NCBI GenBank assembly: GCA_002189035.1
Contig: NEEC01000017.1
Coordinates: 1,302,001 to 1,366,000, forward strand
Reading direction: 5' to 3'
From: Utricularia gibba
Lineage: Eukaryota > Streptophyta > Magnoliopsida > Lamiales > Lentibulariaceae
Length of the DNA: 64,000 bases
Of the stretch, positions 1,212 through 20,578 are shown in pieces (the stretch's first letter is position 1; the number at the start of each line of letters is the position of its first letter). The position numbers and the translations under genes are program-made. The notes beneath the pieces were generated by a model. The model was given only the letters and a program-made list of their open reading frames with translations, was not told the origin of the DNA and made no database searches.

Positions 1212-1595
1212 TCATCCAAAGCACTGTTCGCTGGGAAGAGGACCGGGAAGGGAACCCTGATCGAGAAACTGCAATCCAAACACCACAATTATTCCCAACA
1301 GACACAGATACGAGAGACCCTCAACGGCTCCCAGTAATCCAAATGGCCCGTTCGGAAGACCCGAACCCGTTTTGCTCTTCGTGTACAGAGACCACGCCAC
1401 GATTGCGCCAACCGTCAGAAAACTCACTCCCTCCAGCGCGCCGATTGATCCTCCAGGACCCGGAGGGAGCCCGCATCTGGTGGTCTTAAGTGTGTACAGA
1501 GACCAAACCACCACCGGGTTCGCGATTAGACCTCCTATAATGGCTGCGCTCTCCACGACGGTGGGGCTGCCGCTGCTCCCTTCGCCACGGGCCAT
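1212..1595 (-). CDS. DUF1118 / RIQ-like thylakoid membrane protein
   Basis: The 127-aa core from the first in-frame Met (1595) has the pattern of the DUF1118 family, which includes Arabidopsis RIQ1 and RIQ2. Those are grana thylakoid proteins that affect light-harvesting complex organisation. Seen directly are the paired motifs VVWSLYTLKTTRCGLPPGPGG and AWSLYTKSKTGSGLPNGPFG, each next to a hydrophobic segment, and a C-terminal third hydrophobic segment ending PGPLPSEQCFG. The reading frame continues upstream of 1595 without a Met. It gives a basic, Ser/Arg-rich stretch ending IPRCRILKIHAMA, which looks like a plastid transit peptide. The only suitable ATG (1708-1710) is one base out of frame with it. 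The real start is therefore uncertain: either 1595, or 1710 with a one-base error near the G5 run at 1690-1694, or an upstream exon. Confidence 0.8.
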   Translation of the reverse strand: MARGEGSSGSPTVVESAAIIGGLIANPVVVWSLYTLKTTRCGLPPGPGGSIGALEGVSFLTVGAIVAWSLYTKSKTGSGLPNGPFGLLGAVEGLSYLCLLGIIVVFGLQFLDQGSLPGPLPSEQCFG

Positions 1596-2606
1596 GGCGT
1601 GAATTTTGAGGATACGGCAACGGGGAATGGATTCCGGCCGGTGCAGAAGGCGGCATAGCGACGGCAGCTTGCGATTGCGGGAATTGAAAGGGGGTTGATA
1701 GCAGCAACATTTTTTTTTCTGGATGGAGCTTGTGGCTGCGAACTGGCTGCCTTAGCTTCAGATGCGAGAGCAATGGCTACAAAAATATTAGCTTTTTATT
1801 CTTTATTTCTTTTATTGTACAGAATTACACATCGCATACATCACCCCTAATCAGATCCGTTGCCAAGATCCGAATCATCCACCTCTCACGAACTATTTAG
1901 CTACTGTATTTTGCAAACTCAGGTACAGAGTCCTCGTTCAGATCTGTCCAAGCTACATTTTTTCAACGAAAACTTTAAAAAACGGAATCTGGGTAGCAAT
2001 TTGAAGTGCTAGTTGCAGCCAGGAATGGTGAGGCAGGAGGCAACTCCACTATACGGTGTACAGGCCACGTTGCCCACCGACTCATCACGTGAACGGACGC
2101 AAATTCCTGGCTCATTTCTCGCTTATGTTCCGCTTTAATCGCGAATCGTCAATGCGTTTTGCCTTTAGTTTTAGTTTGTCATCCTCAACACGCTCCCCTG
2201 TTGGTGTCGGTCTGAAATTTCTCTCTTTTATCTCAAATCTCCAAATGGGGTTTCGTTGTTTTTCCTTTCCCTTTGATGGATGCCTCCTGTTGATAGATCC
2301 ATGTTCTTGCATTCTTGCCTAAGGATCATTTTCTGTTTGATTTGCGAATTGGGTAGGAAGTAGTTTGGTTCATCGTTTTGAATCAGTTTCGCAATTGCAC
2401 AGGGTTTTCCATCTAATTCAACTCCAAAAACAATCTGAACTTTTGCTGCGTTACATACGTTTTTGAAGGAAAATTCCATCTTTACAAGGGAAATGGGAAC
2501 ATGGGGTCAATTCTCTCGAGCTTGCAGTTTTCTTGTACAGTACAGTTTCTCATAGATGCAACATTTCTCTTTGCCGTAGGCTGTAAGAAGCTAGCTTTGC
2601 CACAAA
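1596..2606. other. Divergent intergenic region with a G-box
   Basis: This is the shared upstream region of the DUF1118-like gene (minus strand) and the E2 gene (plus strand). It holds the probable transit-peptide sequence up to about 1750, and a CACGTG core at 2086-2091. The stretch from about 2100 to 2600 is T-rich with pyrimidine tracts and probably includes the E2 gene's 5' UTR and possibly a leader intron. No other coding region is supported. Confidence 0.5.
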
Positions 2607-6443: not shown

Positions 6444-6710
6444 TCAGTTGTGTACTACCTCCATGACGGTTTCCCGACGATGAAAGCTCCGGTGGCAGCC
6501 GCAGGCGGCGCAAATGAGGGCCCCACGGGTGCCGTCCTCGCCGGAGGCCATGAACTCCCGGCAGCCGTCCACTGCGTAGCCGCCCTCATTCGCAACCTGG
6601 TTCTTCTGGCACTCCGCGTACCTCACCGTCCGCACGGTGGAGGCGGAGCCGGTAGAGTTGGTCGGAAATTGGTCGTCGGATTTCAAGCAGACCACGTGGC
6701 GTTTCTTCAT
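6444..6710 (-). CDS. MIF: Mini zinc finger (MIF) protein
   Basis: An 88-aa ORF starts MKKRHVV, matching the usual MIF start. A Met 39 codons upstream (6827) is also in frame but adds a segment not typical of MIFs. The ZF-HD zinc-binding domain is clear: [33 protein letters not shown] and [19 protein letters not shown] proteins are homeodomain-less relatives of ZF-HD factors. They heterodimerise with them and block them in hormone and floral development. One oddity: the normally invariant KNH reads KNQ (codon CAG), which removes a His at a conserved metal-binding position. The Ala after it is Val. The remaining Cys and His residues are present. Confidence 0.9.
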
Positions 6711-7966
6711 TCGGACGGGGGAGTGAGATGCTCCCTGTCTCCTCAAGATTGTTATCTCCACCAAATCGGACTGGTTTTCTTCTTCGTCTATGTGCAGCGG
6801 GGGAACCCTAACCCTAGATAGCTCCATTTATACAGCGAGACAGAAGATTCCTTTCAAACGTGAACCACTAAACATATTTGTTTGGCAGATATTTTTTAAT
6901 TATTCCGTTAATCACCATATTATAACACTTTTGTTCCTGTACGGAAATACCGAAAATCAATAAACAAAAAAACGAGCCATTCCTCCCGTTGCCTATTCAT
7001 GATACATCTGGTTTCATGGACTAGTCAATTCTAAATATTAAATAAGTTATAGTATACTTGTTGAAACTAAGTATCGAAGTAATTCAAATATATAAAAAAT
7101 ATAGATCACATTAGAAAAAATTATATTCAACTAATATTTAATTATTTTTTCTAATAATACTTTGTATTTTCACTTAGCTAGTATTATATTAATATCAACT
7201 AATTATCTTTATATTTCCACTAGAGTCATAAGTAACTCCCCTCACCCTATTTTAGTCTCAACTAATAATGAATTGATGGCGCCCAACTACCCTGCTTCCA
7301 AGCCTCACTTAGCGAGGGCCCACTCACTAGATTATTGGAAGACCCCTGGCCCCACACCACGTTCACTTCATTTCACCCCTCAGGACCGACGGACGACGCC
7401 GTTTCCTACAGGAGGCGACGGGGTGTTATTAAATAAAAATATAGATTATATTACATACTGTATTTCACGAATGCTTTAATTCAACTGCAAATTTGTCGTC
7501 AAAATTATTTTATTTTGCTTTTCAATCTGAAAAGGTCGACGACAATGGAATGTTTGTCGGTACTAGTAAAATTGAATTGAAAAAAAAATAAGATTATAAA
7601 TTGAGCATCAATTATGTCATTAATATAAATAATAGCAACTGTTTTTTTTATTTTTAAATAATAGAAATCAATTATAAATGGTTTTGCGTAGCTGAGGGGT
7701 CAATGAGATGGGGCCCATGCTTCACCATTTAAAATAATGATATAATAACCAAAAATACGTAAGCCATGCCATGCATGCGGTGTTGGGTTGTGGGGGAGGC
7801 CCATGTGAAGTCATGGGCCCAATCCTCTCCCTGCTGCAGGCCCAGCAGCTGGTGGATGGGTCCTTTTGTCCCCAGTAGGAAGGACATGAGATGGGGGTAG
7901 GGGGCCAGGGGCTCCAATGATGCGGCTCTGCTTGGCCCAGCAGCTGCTTCCATTCAAAGCATTTAT

Positions 7967-13023: not shown

Positions 13024-13488
13024 GGCGGAGCTGCAGCTTCTCGCCCTCCGCTTTCTTCTCCGGATTCGCGTCAAGTGAAACCTCGACAGGGGCTTTAAGT
13101 TTCCGCGTGAAACGGGCGTGTCGGCGATTTCAAGGCTTTGTGTTGTGCTCGCTCGCTGTAGCTTGGAAGCCGGAGTGTTCTCCGGAAAGTCGACGTGCGG
13201 GAAAATATTTTTCTTTATGTTAATTTGTAGCATGCCTGTTTCCTAGGGTTCTTTTTATTTGAGATGGCGCCGCGCCCTTTGTTTTCATGACTGACGTAGA
13301 GAAAACCGGTATCACACCATAAACCAAAACTTCGCCTTGCAAAAAGGGTTCGGTGTGGAACGCAGATAGAGCCATGATCTTGCTACACTTTTTTAAAAGC
13401 CCAAATCCTCACAAGTCCACACATCATTTGTATTGCTTCGTGATGTTCAGGACGATTCGTGATTAACTGTCGTTGGTTATTGTTCAGG

Positions 13489-16400
13489 ATGGGCAGAGAG
13501 AAAATCGAGATCAAGAAAATAGGCAACTTGGCGGCGAGGCAAGTGACCTTTTCCAAAAGACGTCAAGGTCTAGTAAAAAAAGCTCGTGAACTTTCAGTTT
13601 TGTGCGAGGCTGAGGTGGCAGTCATCGTTTTCTCTCAAACGGGGAGGATCTACCACTACTCCAGCTCCGAGTAATGCACTTTTTGTTTGATCTTGTCCCA
13701 TGTTCTGTTTACTGCAAAGATTGGGTTTTTGTGTGAATTCATTCCCATATTCATGATTTCTAGCTTGAACCCCTCTATGGTAAAACTGATCCTCGTTGGC
13801 AGAATATTTGCTGACGCCTCTTGTGCTGTGGCCATGGAATTATGTTTTGGCAGATTAGAACCAAACACTGTGGATTTTTGTAGTCAAAAATTTTAGAGCG
13901 TTGATGGATATCTTGATGATGGTTCTGTGATAATACTTGCTTGTTTGCATAACTTTTGCTGTCCTACTTGATTAATTTGATGGAATAAGGAGTCTAGTTT
14001 GCTGTAGATCCTGACATGTAAAAAGTTGGAATGGGGAATAAGGATTATGAAATCGTTAATAGAAACAGAAAAGATTCACAAAGCTCCATTGAGATCATGA
14101 AAACGCTATCCATAACAAGGATTCTAGATACTTTCTGTTGATACCCGACAGAAGAGAAGATAGGATGTGATGTTGATTAATTGTATTGTAATGTGTCCAG
14201 GTGAAGATGCTGAAGAAATGCTTTTTGAATGCCACCAATAACTTTGTCCCATGCATAAAAAAGTATATAGAAGAGTTTTTTGGTCATTTAATTCTCAGTG
14301 AGTATAACAAACATTATCTGTTTCTTAATAAGGTGTCATTTTTCACGATGAAAGGCTGAAGGGGCTTCTGACAGGTACGAAGTGCTGCTTTCAGAACTTC
14401 TTTGGCCTTTTGACATTTTCCATATAAAATAGTCATGATACATTTCCATGGAACAGGTTTGCATCTTTGTTCAAAAAAAAAAAAAAAATTAGAAAGAAAA
14501 AAAGTTGTGTTGGGGTAGTAGCGTGTGTGGAAGCCCTTTTCGTCCACAGGAACCAGAAAGCTAGAGTTAGGAAAATGACCAACACCTTACTATTGTTTCT
14601 TGTCTGTTCTTTTCTTTTAGACACTCACACATACACATGCTCTGAAGCTCATTCAAGAACTGACCCTCCTTCAGTGCTCATGCTTCACCATTTAGCAGTT
14701 GCCATGTTTGCTGCCATGAACTAAATCTAACCTGCAGCAGTAACAGATGTCAATCCTAAATTCCAGTAGAAAACATGCTCCATTTTTTACAAGTTCAAAT
14801 TTTTTATGTGACAAAAGCAATTGCCTATTTATTCATCTTTCATGTTCCTTAAAAACAGATTTCCATGGCCATGTTGGAAATTTACGAAGCACATCATTCT
14901 GTCAATATGCTACTGTTAGATAATATTTTTTCGATGTTAATTTGTCTGTTAATTTCTGAAGCATTGATGAAACGCTCAAACAATTTTCTGTGCACTTGGA
15001 CTCGGAGCGGAAACTGGTAGGATTTACTTGTACGAGTTGGGAATATTTTATTCATGATCCTACACTTTAAGCACATAAGCACTTGCATGGTATTCAAGAC
15101 AGTGAGTCAACTTAAGGATACTTTCAGAGTTCTCGAAATGCATCAGCTCAGAATAGTTATGAAAACTTCAAGCATCTACTATCAAAATTCTTTAACTGGG
15201 AAGATGCTATCAATATTTCAAGAACTATATTGTGCCTGAAGTCATTGAAATAGACCTTTAGGCCTAGATTTGTATTCACCTGACTGATACTATTCTCAAC
15301 CAAGACATTTAAACAAATAAAAAGAGATAGCTAAAAAAGAACAGGGCACAAGTTACCTATTGTGGCATCTTGTCCACCATATTTTTGATGCCTGTATTTG
15401 CTTTCAGGTACAGAATCAGGTTCAGCTGAGTACAGATGTTGAGGATAAAATAAATTACCTGAGGTATGATCCCAGGAATTCTCACCAGGGTACTGAAGCT
15501 ATTGAAATTCATATTAACATCCATCCATACAGGAAAATCACTGAAAATCCTCATAAGTTTGGTGAAGAAGAAGTCAACAAGCTAGAGGTGAAGCTTGAAG
15601 AAATACTTACCGGCTTGAAGAACAAAAAGGTTCTTCCCTCGAACTATGCAAATTACAGTCAATTACTAAAATGAAGTTGCCGTTGATATGAATCTTCAAT
15701 TTTGATTCCAGCGAGATGTTCTCATGAGTGAAGTGCCTGCCCTTCAATCAAAGGTGGGTTTACAGCAAAATGCCATCTGCATAAAATGTTGATTGTAAAA
15801 GAGCCTAAATCACCTAAACGATGAAGTTGAAGATGGCTGTTCAATCTTAGATAATTTGGAAGCATTAAAAAACCTTTAGAGCAGTGGAAAGATAACTCCT
15901 CCTTTGAATCATTTCAGGATCCCTGCACCTACAATGCTGCTAGAAGTCAACCGGGAGAGTTAGCTGCTGATGCAGTCACTGAATTCGGTTCCGGAGAACC
16001 TTATTTTTCATACTACCAACTACAAAATGTTCTATCCAACCAACCTGATTCTCCCGGAAGGTGGTCTCCCCCACCTCCAAGTACTTACAAGGTGAATTTC
16101 AGTGGAGCAAACTTTGGTGCTTCCGGGGTTGGAGCGGGAGTTGTGATCCGGAACTGGAAAGGAGAATTTATGGCTGCTCTAGCGAAGTTCTCACCGGAGT
16201 TAATGGACTACAGCAGCACTTCCTTCTTTGCTGCAAAATGTGCTCTAGAATTTGCTGCCGGTTACTCCTTCACTGACATCCTGGTGGAAGGGGATTGCCC
16301 AAGTGCCATCAACCGGCTACAGAGTATCCATGAAGATCTGCCTCTCGCATCCACCAAAGACATGCTAGATGCTAAGACTTGGATGATGCAATTCAGAAAA

Positions 16401-16547
16401 TGCATGTTTTTGCATATACCAACAACAGGAAACATTGCTGCATACATGATGGCACAGTATGCAAAAAATGTTCCCGATGAAGATGTCTGGCTAATCAAAG
16501 AACCTGACTTCCTCGCTGACATCCTTTTGGCTGATCAAACCCCATGA
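13489..16547 (+). CDS. MIKC MADS-box protein fused to an RNase H-like domain
   Basis: Six exons keep one frame (353 aa): 13489-13670, 14962-15016, 15408-15463, 15533-15629, 15712-15753 and 15918-16547. Exon 1 is 182 nt, as is typical of MIKC genes. It encodes a full MADS domain ([19 protein letters not shown] to [18 protein letters not shown]) with AGL15/18- or SVP-like residues. Exon 2 is the intervening region ([18 protein letters not shown]). Exons 3-5 are a shortened K-box ([20 protein letters not shown]). Exon 5 has the classical 42 nt ([14 protein letters not shown]). Exon 6 is a C-terminal linker followed by [49 protein letters not shown] and a final [17 protein letters not shown]. That is the RNase H-like (RVT_3-type) pattern found in plant LINE-derived genes. 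Of the usual acidic residues the first (NFDGA) is Ser and the Glu position is Lys. Only the EGD Asp remains, so catalysis is unlikely. MADS proteins bind CArG boxes in the nucleus. The role of the extra domain is unknown. Confidence 0.75.
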
Positions 16548-17587: not shown

Positions 17588-20578
17588 TTACAGGTCCAGA
17601 AACTGAACAACGTCCTTGTTCCCTCCAACCACAGACAGAACAGTCCCTGCAATGTGCCTTGGGGTGAGCCCGGCTTCTTCCATCTGGTCGCTCTGCGCGC
17701 CGTGGTCGATGTATCGGTCCGGTAGCATCATCGCCCGCCACTGCCGGACAATGGATGCGTTTCGTTAGGAAAATCTGTCCTGTTAGCATGAGATGTTAGG
17801 AGGCTGACTGACCTTGAGCTTGCCGTCGAGTAAGCCGTTCAGACTCAAGAAATGGGAGACATGGGAGCTGAATCCTCCGATGGATCCTTCTTCTACAGTT
17901 AGGAGAAACTCGTGCTCCTTGGCTAGCCGGCGGATCAAGTCGCCATCTAGAGGCTTGCAGAATCGGGCATCGGCTACCGTCACTGAAACGCCGTGATCTT
18001 GGAGAATTCTTGCGGCAGCTAGGCAGTTTTGTACGATTATTCCGAAGCCAAGGATTGCAACTCTGGTTCCCTCCCGCAGGATTCTTCCCCTGCCGATCTG
18101 TGCAGAAAGGACAGTTCTTGGGATGAGAGATTCATGTTGCTCCGTGAAGATGGATGTGACGGCGTACCTCCAAGGGAGAGCCCTTGTTGTCAGGAGGAAG
18201 AGGAGCTCCGACGCCGTTGCCACGAGGGTATCTGACGCAGCTCGGGCGGTCGTCGATCGCGGCTGAGGTAGCAATCATGTGCATCAGCTCAGCCTCGTCA
18301 GATGGAGCCATGACGATCATGTTAGGCAAGCAAGCCATGAAAGTAGTATCAAAGGCTCCACAGTGGGTAGGACCATCGGCTCCGACGAGCCCTGCACGAT
18401 CCATCATGAATCTCACCGGCAGCTTCTGAAGGTCCACGTCATGAACCACCTGTAATCCAGGGACGCTGTTGCTGACTCTTCCATCAGCAGTAAAAATGTG
18501 CAGAAACTACTCAGTGACTTACCTGATCGTACCCCCGCTGAAGAAACGATGAGTATATAGCGCAGAATGGCCTCAAGCCTTCAGTGGCCATGCCAGCTGC
18601 GAAGGTGACTGCGTGCTGCTCAGCAATTCCGACATCGAAACATCGCTCAGGGAAACGTTTCTGGAAAATGTTTAGTCCAGTGCCACCACCCATGGCGGCG
18701 TGGATGGCCACGATCTTGTCGTCCACCATTGCCTCAGCCGCTAAGGAGTGTGCGAAATACTCCGTATAGGAAAGCGTCGCCGATTTGCTTTTGGATTGCC
18801 GCCCTGTTTTAGGATCAAACTTCACCACCCCTGCAGCAACATGATCCAGCTTCAGAATGCAACCAGAACGTAACCCATGAGGAATTTTACGAATAAGTAC
18901 CGTGCATCTTATCAGCAGCAGCTTCCGCCGGCGGATACCCTTTCCCCTTCTCAGTTAAAATGTGTATCATCACCGGTCCCGGTGCCGGCATCTCCTTAAC
19001 CCTACTGAAAATGTAAACCAGATCCTCAATGCTGTGACCGTCAACCGGGCCGATGTAATAAATCCCAAGCTCGTCAAAGAAACATCCTCCGCCGCCAGTT
19101 ATCATTCCTTTGAAGTGAGCATCGACCTTAGCAGCGACATTGTGAACCTGACTCCCCATTCTTTTGGTCATATCCTGCATCGAAAATTATATTCACACAC
19201 CACAGACGTGGAAACAGGTGGGATATTCAAGTTTACTTCTCCTACCTTCGCGGCCTCACGGAGGAGACGGAACTCCCCGTTAGCTTGTAGCCTAGTAAGC
19301 GCCTTGCTCAGTGCCCCCACCGGCGGAGCCGGGCCGTCGATGGTGGCAGTGGGAAGCGAAACTTGCTTATTGTCATTCAAAACAATTATCAGATTGGAGT
19401 CAAGATATCCAGCGTTGTTCATCGCCTCAAAGGCTTGCCCCGCCGTCATGGCCCCATCGCCGATCACCGATATCACGTGGTTTTCTTTGCCCAGCAGATC
19501 CCTCGCCACCGCCATTCCTAATTATAAAATAAACCACATAAATACTTTCACTATACTATAATTTTTTAATCCATTACTTACCCAATTAATTAAATTAACG
19601 TAAATATTTTCTTGAAATATTCTGCTACTTATTTAAATAAAAAATAAATCAATAAAAAATACGATATTTTTGTCTGATTAAAAAAAAAAAAGGCATGCAC
19701 CTAAACCAGCAGAAATGCTTGTGGAGCTGTGACCAGCTCCAAAGGCATCATGCACACTCTCATCCCTTTTGGGGAAACCAGCCAGCCCAAAGCTCTGCCT
19801 GATTGTCTGCATCCTCGACCTCCTCCCGTCAGAATCTTGTGCCCATACGCCTGTCGACATGAGCAGACAACAGGCGTCAATATGCACACAGATTCAGCAA
19901 GATTTGTGTGTTTTCTGTCAAGAGTTTCTTTCCTCTGTGCTGGATCTTGAGTTACGAAGGGTTTTGGGGAGGGTGATTTACCTGATGGCCAACGTCCCAT
20001 ATGATTTTATCTGATGGAGAGTTGAAGACATGGTGAAGTGCGATGGTGAGCTCAGCGACGCCGAGGCTGGAGCTCAAGTGCCCTCCGGTTTTAGAAACTG
20101 CGTACACTATGTCTTCCCTGAGCTCATCCGCCAGCTTCTCCAGATCCTGGAGCAAAAGCATGCATGATTCTAGTAACCGGAGCTTTGCTGTTTTCGAATA
20201 GTCTGTTAGTTACAGACACACGACGCAGATCACCGGAACTACCTCCACAGACAGGTTCTTCATGTGAATGGGGTGGTTGATGGTATCCAGAACCGGAGTC
20301 ACCGGCTTTTCTCCAGTGAATCGGAGAGACGCCGGCGGCCCTCCGCTGGACTTCTTGACGATCGCGTCTTCGTTCTCCTCCGTGTTACTGTGCTGGTGAA
20401 CCGCTGAAATCCCCCATGACTGAAACCAAAGCCACAAGGTAAGAAACCAGACAGAGAAACCTCTGGGAAGAAAGAAACCAAAAAGATCAACCTTTTGTCT
20501 TTGAGTAGTCGGAGAGGAGTCATGGGACTGGAGAAGGGAGAAGAAGCTGTTCCTGAGAATCCCACAGGAAGCCGCCAT
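17588..20578 (-). CDS. DXS: 1-deoxy-D-xylulose-5-phosphate synthase, clade-II-like; one frame break
   Basis: DXS condenses pyruvate and glyceraldehyde 3-phosphate, with thiamine diphosphate, as the first step of the plastid MEP isoprenoid pathway. Ten exons: 20492-20578, 20243-20419, 19982-20146, 19701-19850, 19246-19517, 18901-19174, 18523-18830, 18168-18449, 17813-18097 and 17588-17740. Motifs: [36 protein letters not shown] (TPP site), [49 protein letters not shown] and [18 protein letters not shown]. The N terminus looks like a transit peptide. [20 protein letters not shown] and FAIYSS-type residues resemble clade II DXS, which is linked to specialised or mycorrhizal isoprenoids. Exon 4 is one base short: the frame breaks at the C3 run 19825-19827, between ILTG and RRSRM. 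Exon 4 would need 151 nt for its splice phases to match. Restored length is 717 aa, normal for DXS. Confidence 0.9.

What the first reader, a model, noticed from the sequence alone, without database searches (positions are those of the whole stretch)
13489..16547. MADS-box transcription factor that runs in phase into an RNase H-like domain
Six exons with fully consistent phases join a complete MIKC gene (MADS 182-nt exon, I region, K-box, canonical 42-nt exon) to a 630-nt last exon with an RNase H-like domain of the plant LINE type. There is no stop or reverse transcriptase in between. The exon is open for 210 codons, so it is not a random insertion scar. The domain has lost two of its acidic catalytic positions (Asp to Ser in the NFDGA motif, Glu to Lys), which suggests it was kept for binding and not cleavage. 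I do not know of a described MADS/RNase H-like protein. A domesticated retroelement domain giving a MADS factor nucleic-acid or protein binding would be new.
Basis: partly seen in the sequence, partly recalled or inferred. Interest (0 to 1): 0.88.

Follow-up and report, generated by a model that had tools for sequence, protein, structure and literature searches.

The report
MADS factor fused to RNase-H domain
A plant gene joins the DNA-binding half of a MADS-box developmental regulator to a retroelement-type RNase H domain that has lost most of its catalytic residues, and a second, diverged copy elsewhere in the genome keeps the same join, so it looks like an old, selected fusion gene and not an accident.

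Summary
Six GT/AG exons at 13489-16547 give an open 353-residue protein: a MADS domain (Pfam E 1.1e-23), a degraded K region and an RVT_3 (RNase H-like) domain (E 1.4e-14). The decisive new evidence is a paralogue on contig C98 (1478844-1481155) with the same architecture and phase-0 junction. Within the gene, DNA similarity between the copies lies on exons and splice borders. The RNase H part is 59% identical, dN/dS 0.26 (bootstrap 0.15-0.38), dS about 1.0; simulated neutral drift over that distance nearly always leaves stops. So the fusion predates the duplication and its protein is constrained. Corrections: not a complete MIKC gene (K-box below Pfam's cut-off, no C domain seen), and three of four catalytic acids are lost, not two. 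I infer capture of the 3' end of a LINE ORF2, giving an inactive interaction module. Not testable here: transcripts, other species, biochemistry. Ten searches of an open-access library showed no paper on such a fusion.

The parts
13489..13670 (+). Exon 1 (182 nt): MADS domain, start codon
   Evidence: Pfam SRF-TF E 1.1e-23; similarity to the paralogue over 13477-13676
14962..15016 (+). Exon 2 (55 nt): I region
   Evidence: similarity to the paralogue over 14955-15033
15408..15463 (+). Exon 3 (56 nt; 62 in the paralogue): I/K region
   Evidence: counterpart by position and protein alignment; no DNA match
15533..15629 (+). Exon 4 (97 nt; 100 in the paralogue): divergent K region
   Evidence: similarity to the paralogue over 15530-15634; K-box 15.7 bits, below cut-off
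15712..15753 (+). Exon 5 (42 nt): MIKC-type small K exon; no counterpart found in the C98 paralogue, which stays in frame
   Evidence: no DNA match
15754..15917 (+). Intron 5 (164 nt), GT..AG, between the MADS part and the RNase H-like exon
   Evidence: the acceptor and exon start are conserved (15907-15950 aligned at 75%)
15918..16547 (+). Exon 6 (630 nt): linker, RNase H-like domain, conserved acidic/hydrophobic tail, stop
16128..16463 (+). RVT_3 (RNase H-like) domain, protein residues 215-326
   Evidence: Pfam PF13456 E 1.4e-14; RNase H-type neighbours of a predicted model
16101..16103 (+). First catalytic acid replaced: Ser206 (Ala in the paralogue)
16221..16223 (+). Second catalytic acid replaced: Ser246 (Cys in the paralogue)
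16293..16295 (+). Third catalytic acid kept: Asp270 (Asp in the paralogue)
16443..16445 (+). Fourth catalytic acid replaced: Tyr320 (His in the paralogue)
   Evidence: for the window; for the paralogue; searches align the same columns

Best explanation
This is one real gene of an at least two-member fusion family. SHOWN by sequence: MADS exons splice in phase onto an RNase H-like terminal exon; a diverged paralogue has the same architecture and junction; the MADS and RNase H parts are under purifying selection at the protein level; three of four catalytic acids are gone in both copies. INFERRED: a 5'-truncated plant LINE, whose ORF2 ends with an RNase H domain and a stop, inserted behind the fifth exon of a MIKC-type (perhaps SVP/StMADS11-like) MADS gene and was spliced in as the terminal exon, displacing the K end and C domain. 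That would explain why there is RNase H and a stop but no reverse transcriptase. The protein should still dimerise and bind CArG-box DNA through the MADS domain, form tetramers poorly because the K end is missing, and use the inactive, net acidic RNase H-like domain as a protein-interaction (less likely nucleic-acid-binding) module, acting as a transcriptional regulator or as a competitor of related MADS factors.
Against: No transcript, protein or second species was available. Only two copies, so dN/dS is pairwise and averaged; the linker alone (0.59, 0.26-1.24) is not distinguishable from neutral. No insertion traces were seen. The SVP placement rests on 60 residues and recalled Arabidopsis sequences (91/83, not at the starred level), and by plain identity both copies are closest to recalled AGL15 (44 of 60) among the rows outside the pair. 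What the protein does in the cell is inference.
Confidence: 0.68

Rival explanations
1. Two neighbouring genes read as one: a truncated MADS gene followed by an independent RNase H-like gene.
For: No RNA evidence was available. In the paralogue an in-frame ATG (codon 26 of the exon) precedes the domain.
Against: Both copies keep the same order, strand, short intron (164 and 211 nt) and phase-0 junction, with similarity across the acceptor. The window's last exon has no in-frame ATG before codon 85. The genome search with the RNase H part gave 2 matches from 2 candidates, both behind MADS exons.
Confidence: 0.08
2. The RNase H-like exon came from a host RNase H-like gene, not from a LINE.
For: Intron-split or open RNase H-like stretches that do not look like the abundant retroelement family exist in this genome, e.g. 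C1:2939183-2939482, C508:255555-255764, C213:356613-356819.
Against: In a search of the open frames (40 residues or more) of the loci fetched by then, nothing outside the pair came nearer to the fusion domain than E 0.25, while the recalled LINE-type sequence gave 3.1e-12 in a two-sequence search; the search sizes differ.
Confidence: 0.2
3. An RNA:DNA-hybrid or RNA-binding MADS factor: the dead RNase H domain still grips nucleic acid and steers the factor to R-loops or transposon RNA.
For: The fold seems kept and one catalytic acid is kept; dead nucleases can bind substrate (general knowledge).
Against: More acidic than basic residues in the domain (18 vs 13; paralogue 21 vs 10).
Confidence: 0.2
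4. A decaying chimera: a MADS gene broken by a retroelement, now drifting.
For: The K region is degraded and exon 5 has no counterpart in one copy.
Against: No stop in either copy; dN/dS point estimates below 1 in every part, with the upper bootstrap bound below 1 everywhere except the linker; 55% identity where simulated neutral drift gives about 19%.
Confidence: 0.04

Closest known systems
MIKC-type MADS-box transcription factors, perhaps the SVP/StMADS11 clade
   Same: MADS domain; a 182-nt first exon and a 42-nt K exon, which I recall as typical; groups with SVP-like genes of this genome and recalled SVP/AGL24 (91/83)
   Different: K region truncated and divergent, no C domain seen; RNase H-like terminal exon instead; highest plain identity is to recalled AGL15 (44 of 60)
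Plant LINE (L1-type) ORF2 RNase H domain (RVT_3)
   Same: WxPPP...KxN start as in the recalled LINE-type sequence; RVT_3 profile over nearly its whole length
   Different: No reverse transcriptase or zinc knuckle in the protein; three of four catalytic acids lost; under constraint inside a host gene
FLM allele of Arabidopsis accession Kil-0 (PMC4619661, passages read)
   Same: LINE with an RNase H-like exon copy inside a MADS gene
   Different: Recent insertion in intron 1 that lowers FLM transcripts and alters their splicing; no fusion protein was described in the passages I read
Domesticated transposon genes of plants (FHY3/FAR1, DAYSLEEPER, MUSTANG; PMC7385966, passages read)
   Same: Mobile-element protein retained by the host
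   Different: Those are transposon-derived genes of other kinds; here an RNase H-like domain is joined to a MADS factor

Membership tests
MIKC-type MADS-box protein | MADS (SRF-TF) domain over its cut-off | tested here: met
   82.9 bits vs 26; paralogue 84.8
MIKC-type MADS-box protein | K-box over its cut-off | tested here: not met
   15.7 and 18.7 bits vs 30; match ends at 78 and 69 of 93
MIKC-type MADS-box protein | C domain after the K-box | tested here: not met
   the spliced protein has the RNase H-like exon there; no LxLGL-like motif in 1,053 bases downstream in the window. Alternative transcripts were not testable
SVP/StMADS11 clade | Falls with SVP/AGL24 in a MADS tree | tested here: inconclusive
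   sister to SVP-like rows at 91/83, below the starred level; 60 residues, 15 of 30 rows recalled; plain identity is highest to recalled AGL15
RNase H-like (RVT_3) | Profile match over cut-off | tested here: met
   54.5 and 51.9 bits vs 21.6
RNase H-like (RVT_3) | RNase H fold | tested here: inconclusive
Active RNase H | Four catalytic acids | tested here: not met
   1 of 4 kept in both copies
Plant LINE ORF2 | Reverse transcriptase upstream of RNase H | tested here: not met
   MADS exons lie upstream; Pfam shows no RT match in the spliced protein
Domesticated retroelement-host fusion gene | Protein-level purifying selection | tested here: met
   dN/dS 0.26 (0.15-0.38) on the RNase H part; neutral simulation
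Domesticated retroelement-host fusion gene | Expressed as one transcript | not testable with these tools
   no RNA data held
Domesticated retroelement-host fusion gene | Shared by related species | not testable with these tools
   the genome has no relatives here; protein database switched off

The most novel reading that the evidence does not exclude
A lineage of MADS factors whose tetramerisation and C-terminal half was replaced by a dead retroelement RNase H, giving a new kind of plant regulator that senses RNA:DNA hybrids or recruits a retroelement-related partner at CArG-box genes.
Probability: 0.2. Interest if true: 0.85.

Novelty: new variant of a known kind. Interest (0 to 1): 0.62.

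Why it matters
Domain gain from retroelements is often proposed, but cases in which a plant developmental regulator acquires a retroelement enzyme domain, loses its catalysis and keeps it under selection seem rare (my general knowledge, not a survey). MADS factors work by dimer and tetramer formation; a natural replacement of the tetramerisation end by another fold is a ready test of what that end does. The fusion also gives a marker that can be dated across plants.

Tried and rejected
PDB sequence searches with the RNase H part gave nothing; with the MADS part, 18 MADS chains. The first structure prediction (two rows) failed. The viral fold library gave 1 match at E <= 0.001, an uncharacterized herpesvirus protein with TM-score 0.28 by the query, which I discount; many of the 49 other rows shown are RNase H, reverse transcriptase or Pol proteins. 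Duplication by a shared chromosome block: none of the six non-MADS window genes tested had a match on C98 among the 48 matches (43 of 66 candidates scored), and in the 49.5 kb of C98 read, apart from the fusion gene, only two short stretches matched the window, so the mode of duplication is open. The bacterial promoter/terminator scan does not apply to a plant and is ignored. NCBIfam gave nothing meaningful. A first script to read MADS exons found nothing because of a faulty pattern and was rerun.

Literature: ten searches. Searches found 0 papers; one search matched 2,540 papers at 3 of 4 terms with 10 listed; one search matched 52 at 2 of 5 terms with 15 listed; some searches listed 1, 14, 6 and 5, all that they found. 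I saw listings only, plus passages of PMC4619661, PMC8213826, PMC13317346, PMC7385966, PMC5039176 and PMC7753066; none of these passages describes a MADS/RNase H fusion protein. The other listed papers were not opened. Two papers asked for by DOI are not held; with the taxonomy look-up they belonged to an unproven guess at the species, which I leave unidentified. An earlier count said 10 of 15 zf-RVT matches carry stops; one search shows 11 of 15.

Full report
What is there. Pfam finds a MADS domain (E 1.1e-23) and an RVT_3, i.e. RNase H-like, domain (E 1.4e-14; residues 215-326, profile 13-123 of 123). The K-box scores only 15.7 bits against a cut-off of 30. A stretch of the last exon's composition stays open in 1 of 20,000 first-order Markov simulations, and the domain match is far beyond chance.

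A second copy. A whole-genome search with the last-exon protein found 2 matches of 2 candidates: the window and contig C98 at 55% identity. A search with the MADS part gave the same C98 place as the closest other MADS domain, 80% identical. Reading C98 gives a gene with exons of 185, 55, 62, 100 and 675 nt, open for 358 residues; the 42-nt exon has no counterpart, which leaves the frame intact. It too has MADS (84.8 bits), a sub-threshold K-box (18.7) and RVT_3 (51.9). When 5.1 kb of the window is compared with 4.3 kb of C98, five of the seven plus-strand DNA matches fall on exons 1, 2, 4 and 6 and on the acceptor/start of exon 6 (15907-15950), each with a few flanking bases or none; the other two are 19-21 base matches outside the gene. 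Exons 3 and 5 gave no DNA match. The fusion thus predates the duplication. Two copies is what this search and this assembly show; the genome held may be incomplete.

Selection. Nei-Gojobori values on the codon alignment: MADS dN/dS 0.07 (0.02-0.16; 459 of 500 bootstraps usable), I+K 0.35 (0.14-0.71; 498 of 500), whole last exon 0.32 (0.21-0.47), linker 0.59 (0.26-1.24, so not distinguishable from neutral), RNase H part 0.26 (0.15-0.38) with dS about 1.0. A neutral simulation at the observed distance left 0 of 3000 copies of the exon stop-free, with mean identity 19%; for the RNase H part 3 of 3000 stayed stop-free, and for the exon at half the distance 3 of 3000. Both the MADS and the RNase H parts are therefore kept as protein.

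Catalysis. Aligned to a recalled plant LINE-type sequence (phmmer; profile comparison), the four acids of RNase H read S, S, D, Y in the window and A, C, D, H on C98. MAFFT alignments with more distant domains put a gap at that column; none puts an acid there. With one acid of four, cleavage by the known two-metal mechanism is not expected (established knowledge).

Origin. The exon resembles LINE-type RNase H (E 3.1e-12 window, 5.8e-8 C98, two-sequence searches) and hardly the genome's abundant RVT_3 family (E 0.024 and 0.042). Of the 81 RVT_3 matches I read 57: the two fusion exons; 44 of one retroelement family; ten more in nine stretches, five stretches of that family and four not; and C1:2939183, not of that family. 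The remaining 24 were not read. I call the family Ty3/gypsy from recalled motifs, not from a call. The recalled LINE-type query found the window exon as its best match of 19 in the whole genome; the C98 exon was not among the 19. LINE zinc-knuckle (zf-RVT) matches number 15, 11 with stops inside, so LINEs seem to survive mostly as relics. Capture of a 5'-truncated LINE end explains the RNase H-plus-stop without reverse transcriptase; this is inference, as I saw no insertion traces. A parallel in print is the LINE with an RNase H-like exon copy in the MADS gene FLM (PMC4619661; passages read).

How it may work. The MADS domain should dimerise and bind CArG-box DNA. The K end, which in known MIKC proteins builds tetramers (established knowledge), is missing. 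The attached domain has more acidic than basic residues (18 vs 13, and 21 vs 10), which favours protein over nucleic-acid binding. I therefore expect a regulator or competitor of related MADS factors with a new interaction surface. Which MADS clade it comes from is open: the tree sets it beside SVP-like genes (91/83), while plain identity is highest to recalled AGL15 (44 of 60). Transcription and the situation in other plants could not be tested: no relatives are held, and the protein database was off.

Novelty. Ten searches of an open-access paper library showed no MADS/RNase H fusion in the titles, abstracts and passages I saw; subscription papers and genome annotations were not covered. Host genes with retroelement domains are a known kind, so this is a new variant, with the interest resting on the two-copy conservation.

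Noticed in passing
G000:C402:1167290-1178305 and G000:C505:603659-617056: Two tandem clusters of MADS exons, several copies each; the five of them placed in a tree are SVP-like.
   Followed up: partly
G000:C2:1183943-1194545: Row of four MADS exons; the one placed in the tree (L002) groups with recalled FLC (92/86).
   Followed up: no
window 1212-1751 and 6444-6827; G000:C343:23134-28523: Two window genes have close relatives side by side on C343 (93% and 81% identical), as in a duplicated block; the fusion search gave no match there.
   Followed up: no
G000:C1:2939183-2939482: RNase H-like match split in two pieces 72 bases apart, as in an intron-containing host gene.
   Followed up: partly
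window 17783-18954: Minus-strand open frames just downstream read like 1-deoxyxylulose-5-phosphate synthase (my reading; no family search done).
   Followed up: no
L021:5771-5981: In the C98 copy no counterpart of the 42-nt K exon was found in this intron, which shortens the K region further while keeping frame.
   Followed up: yes
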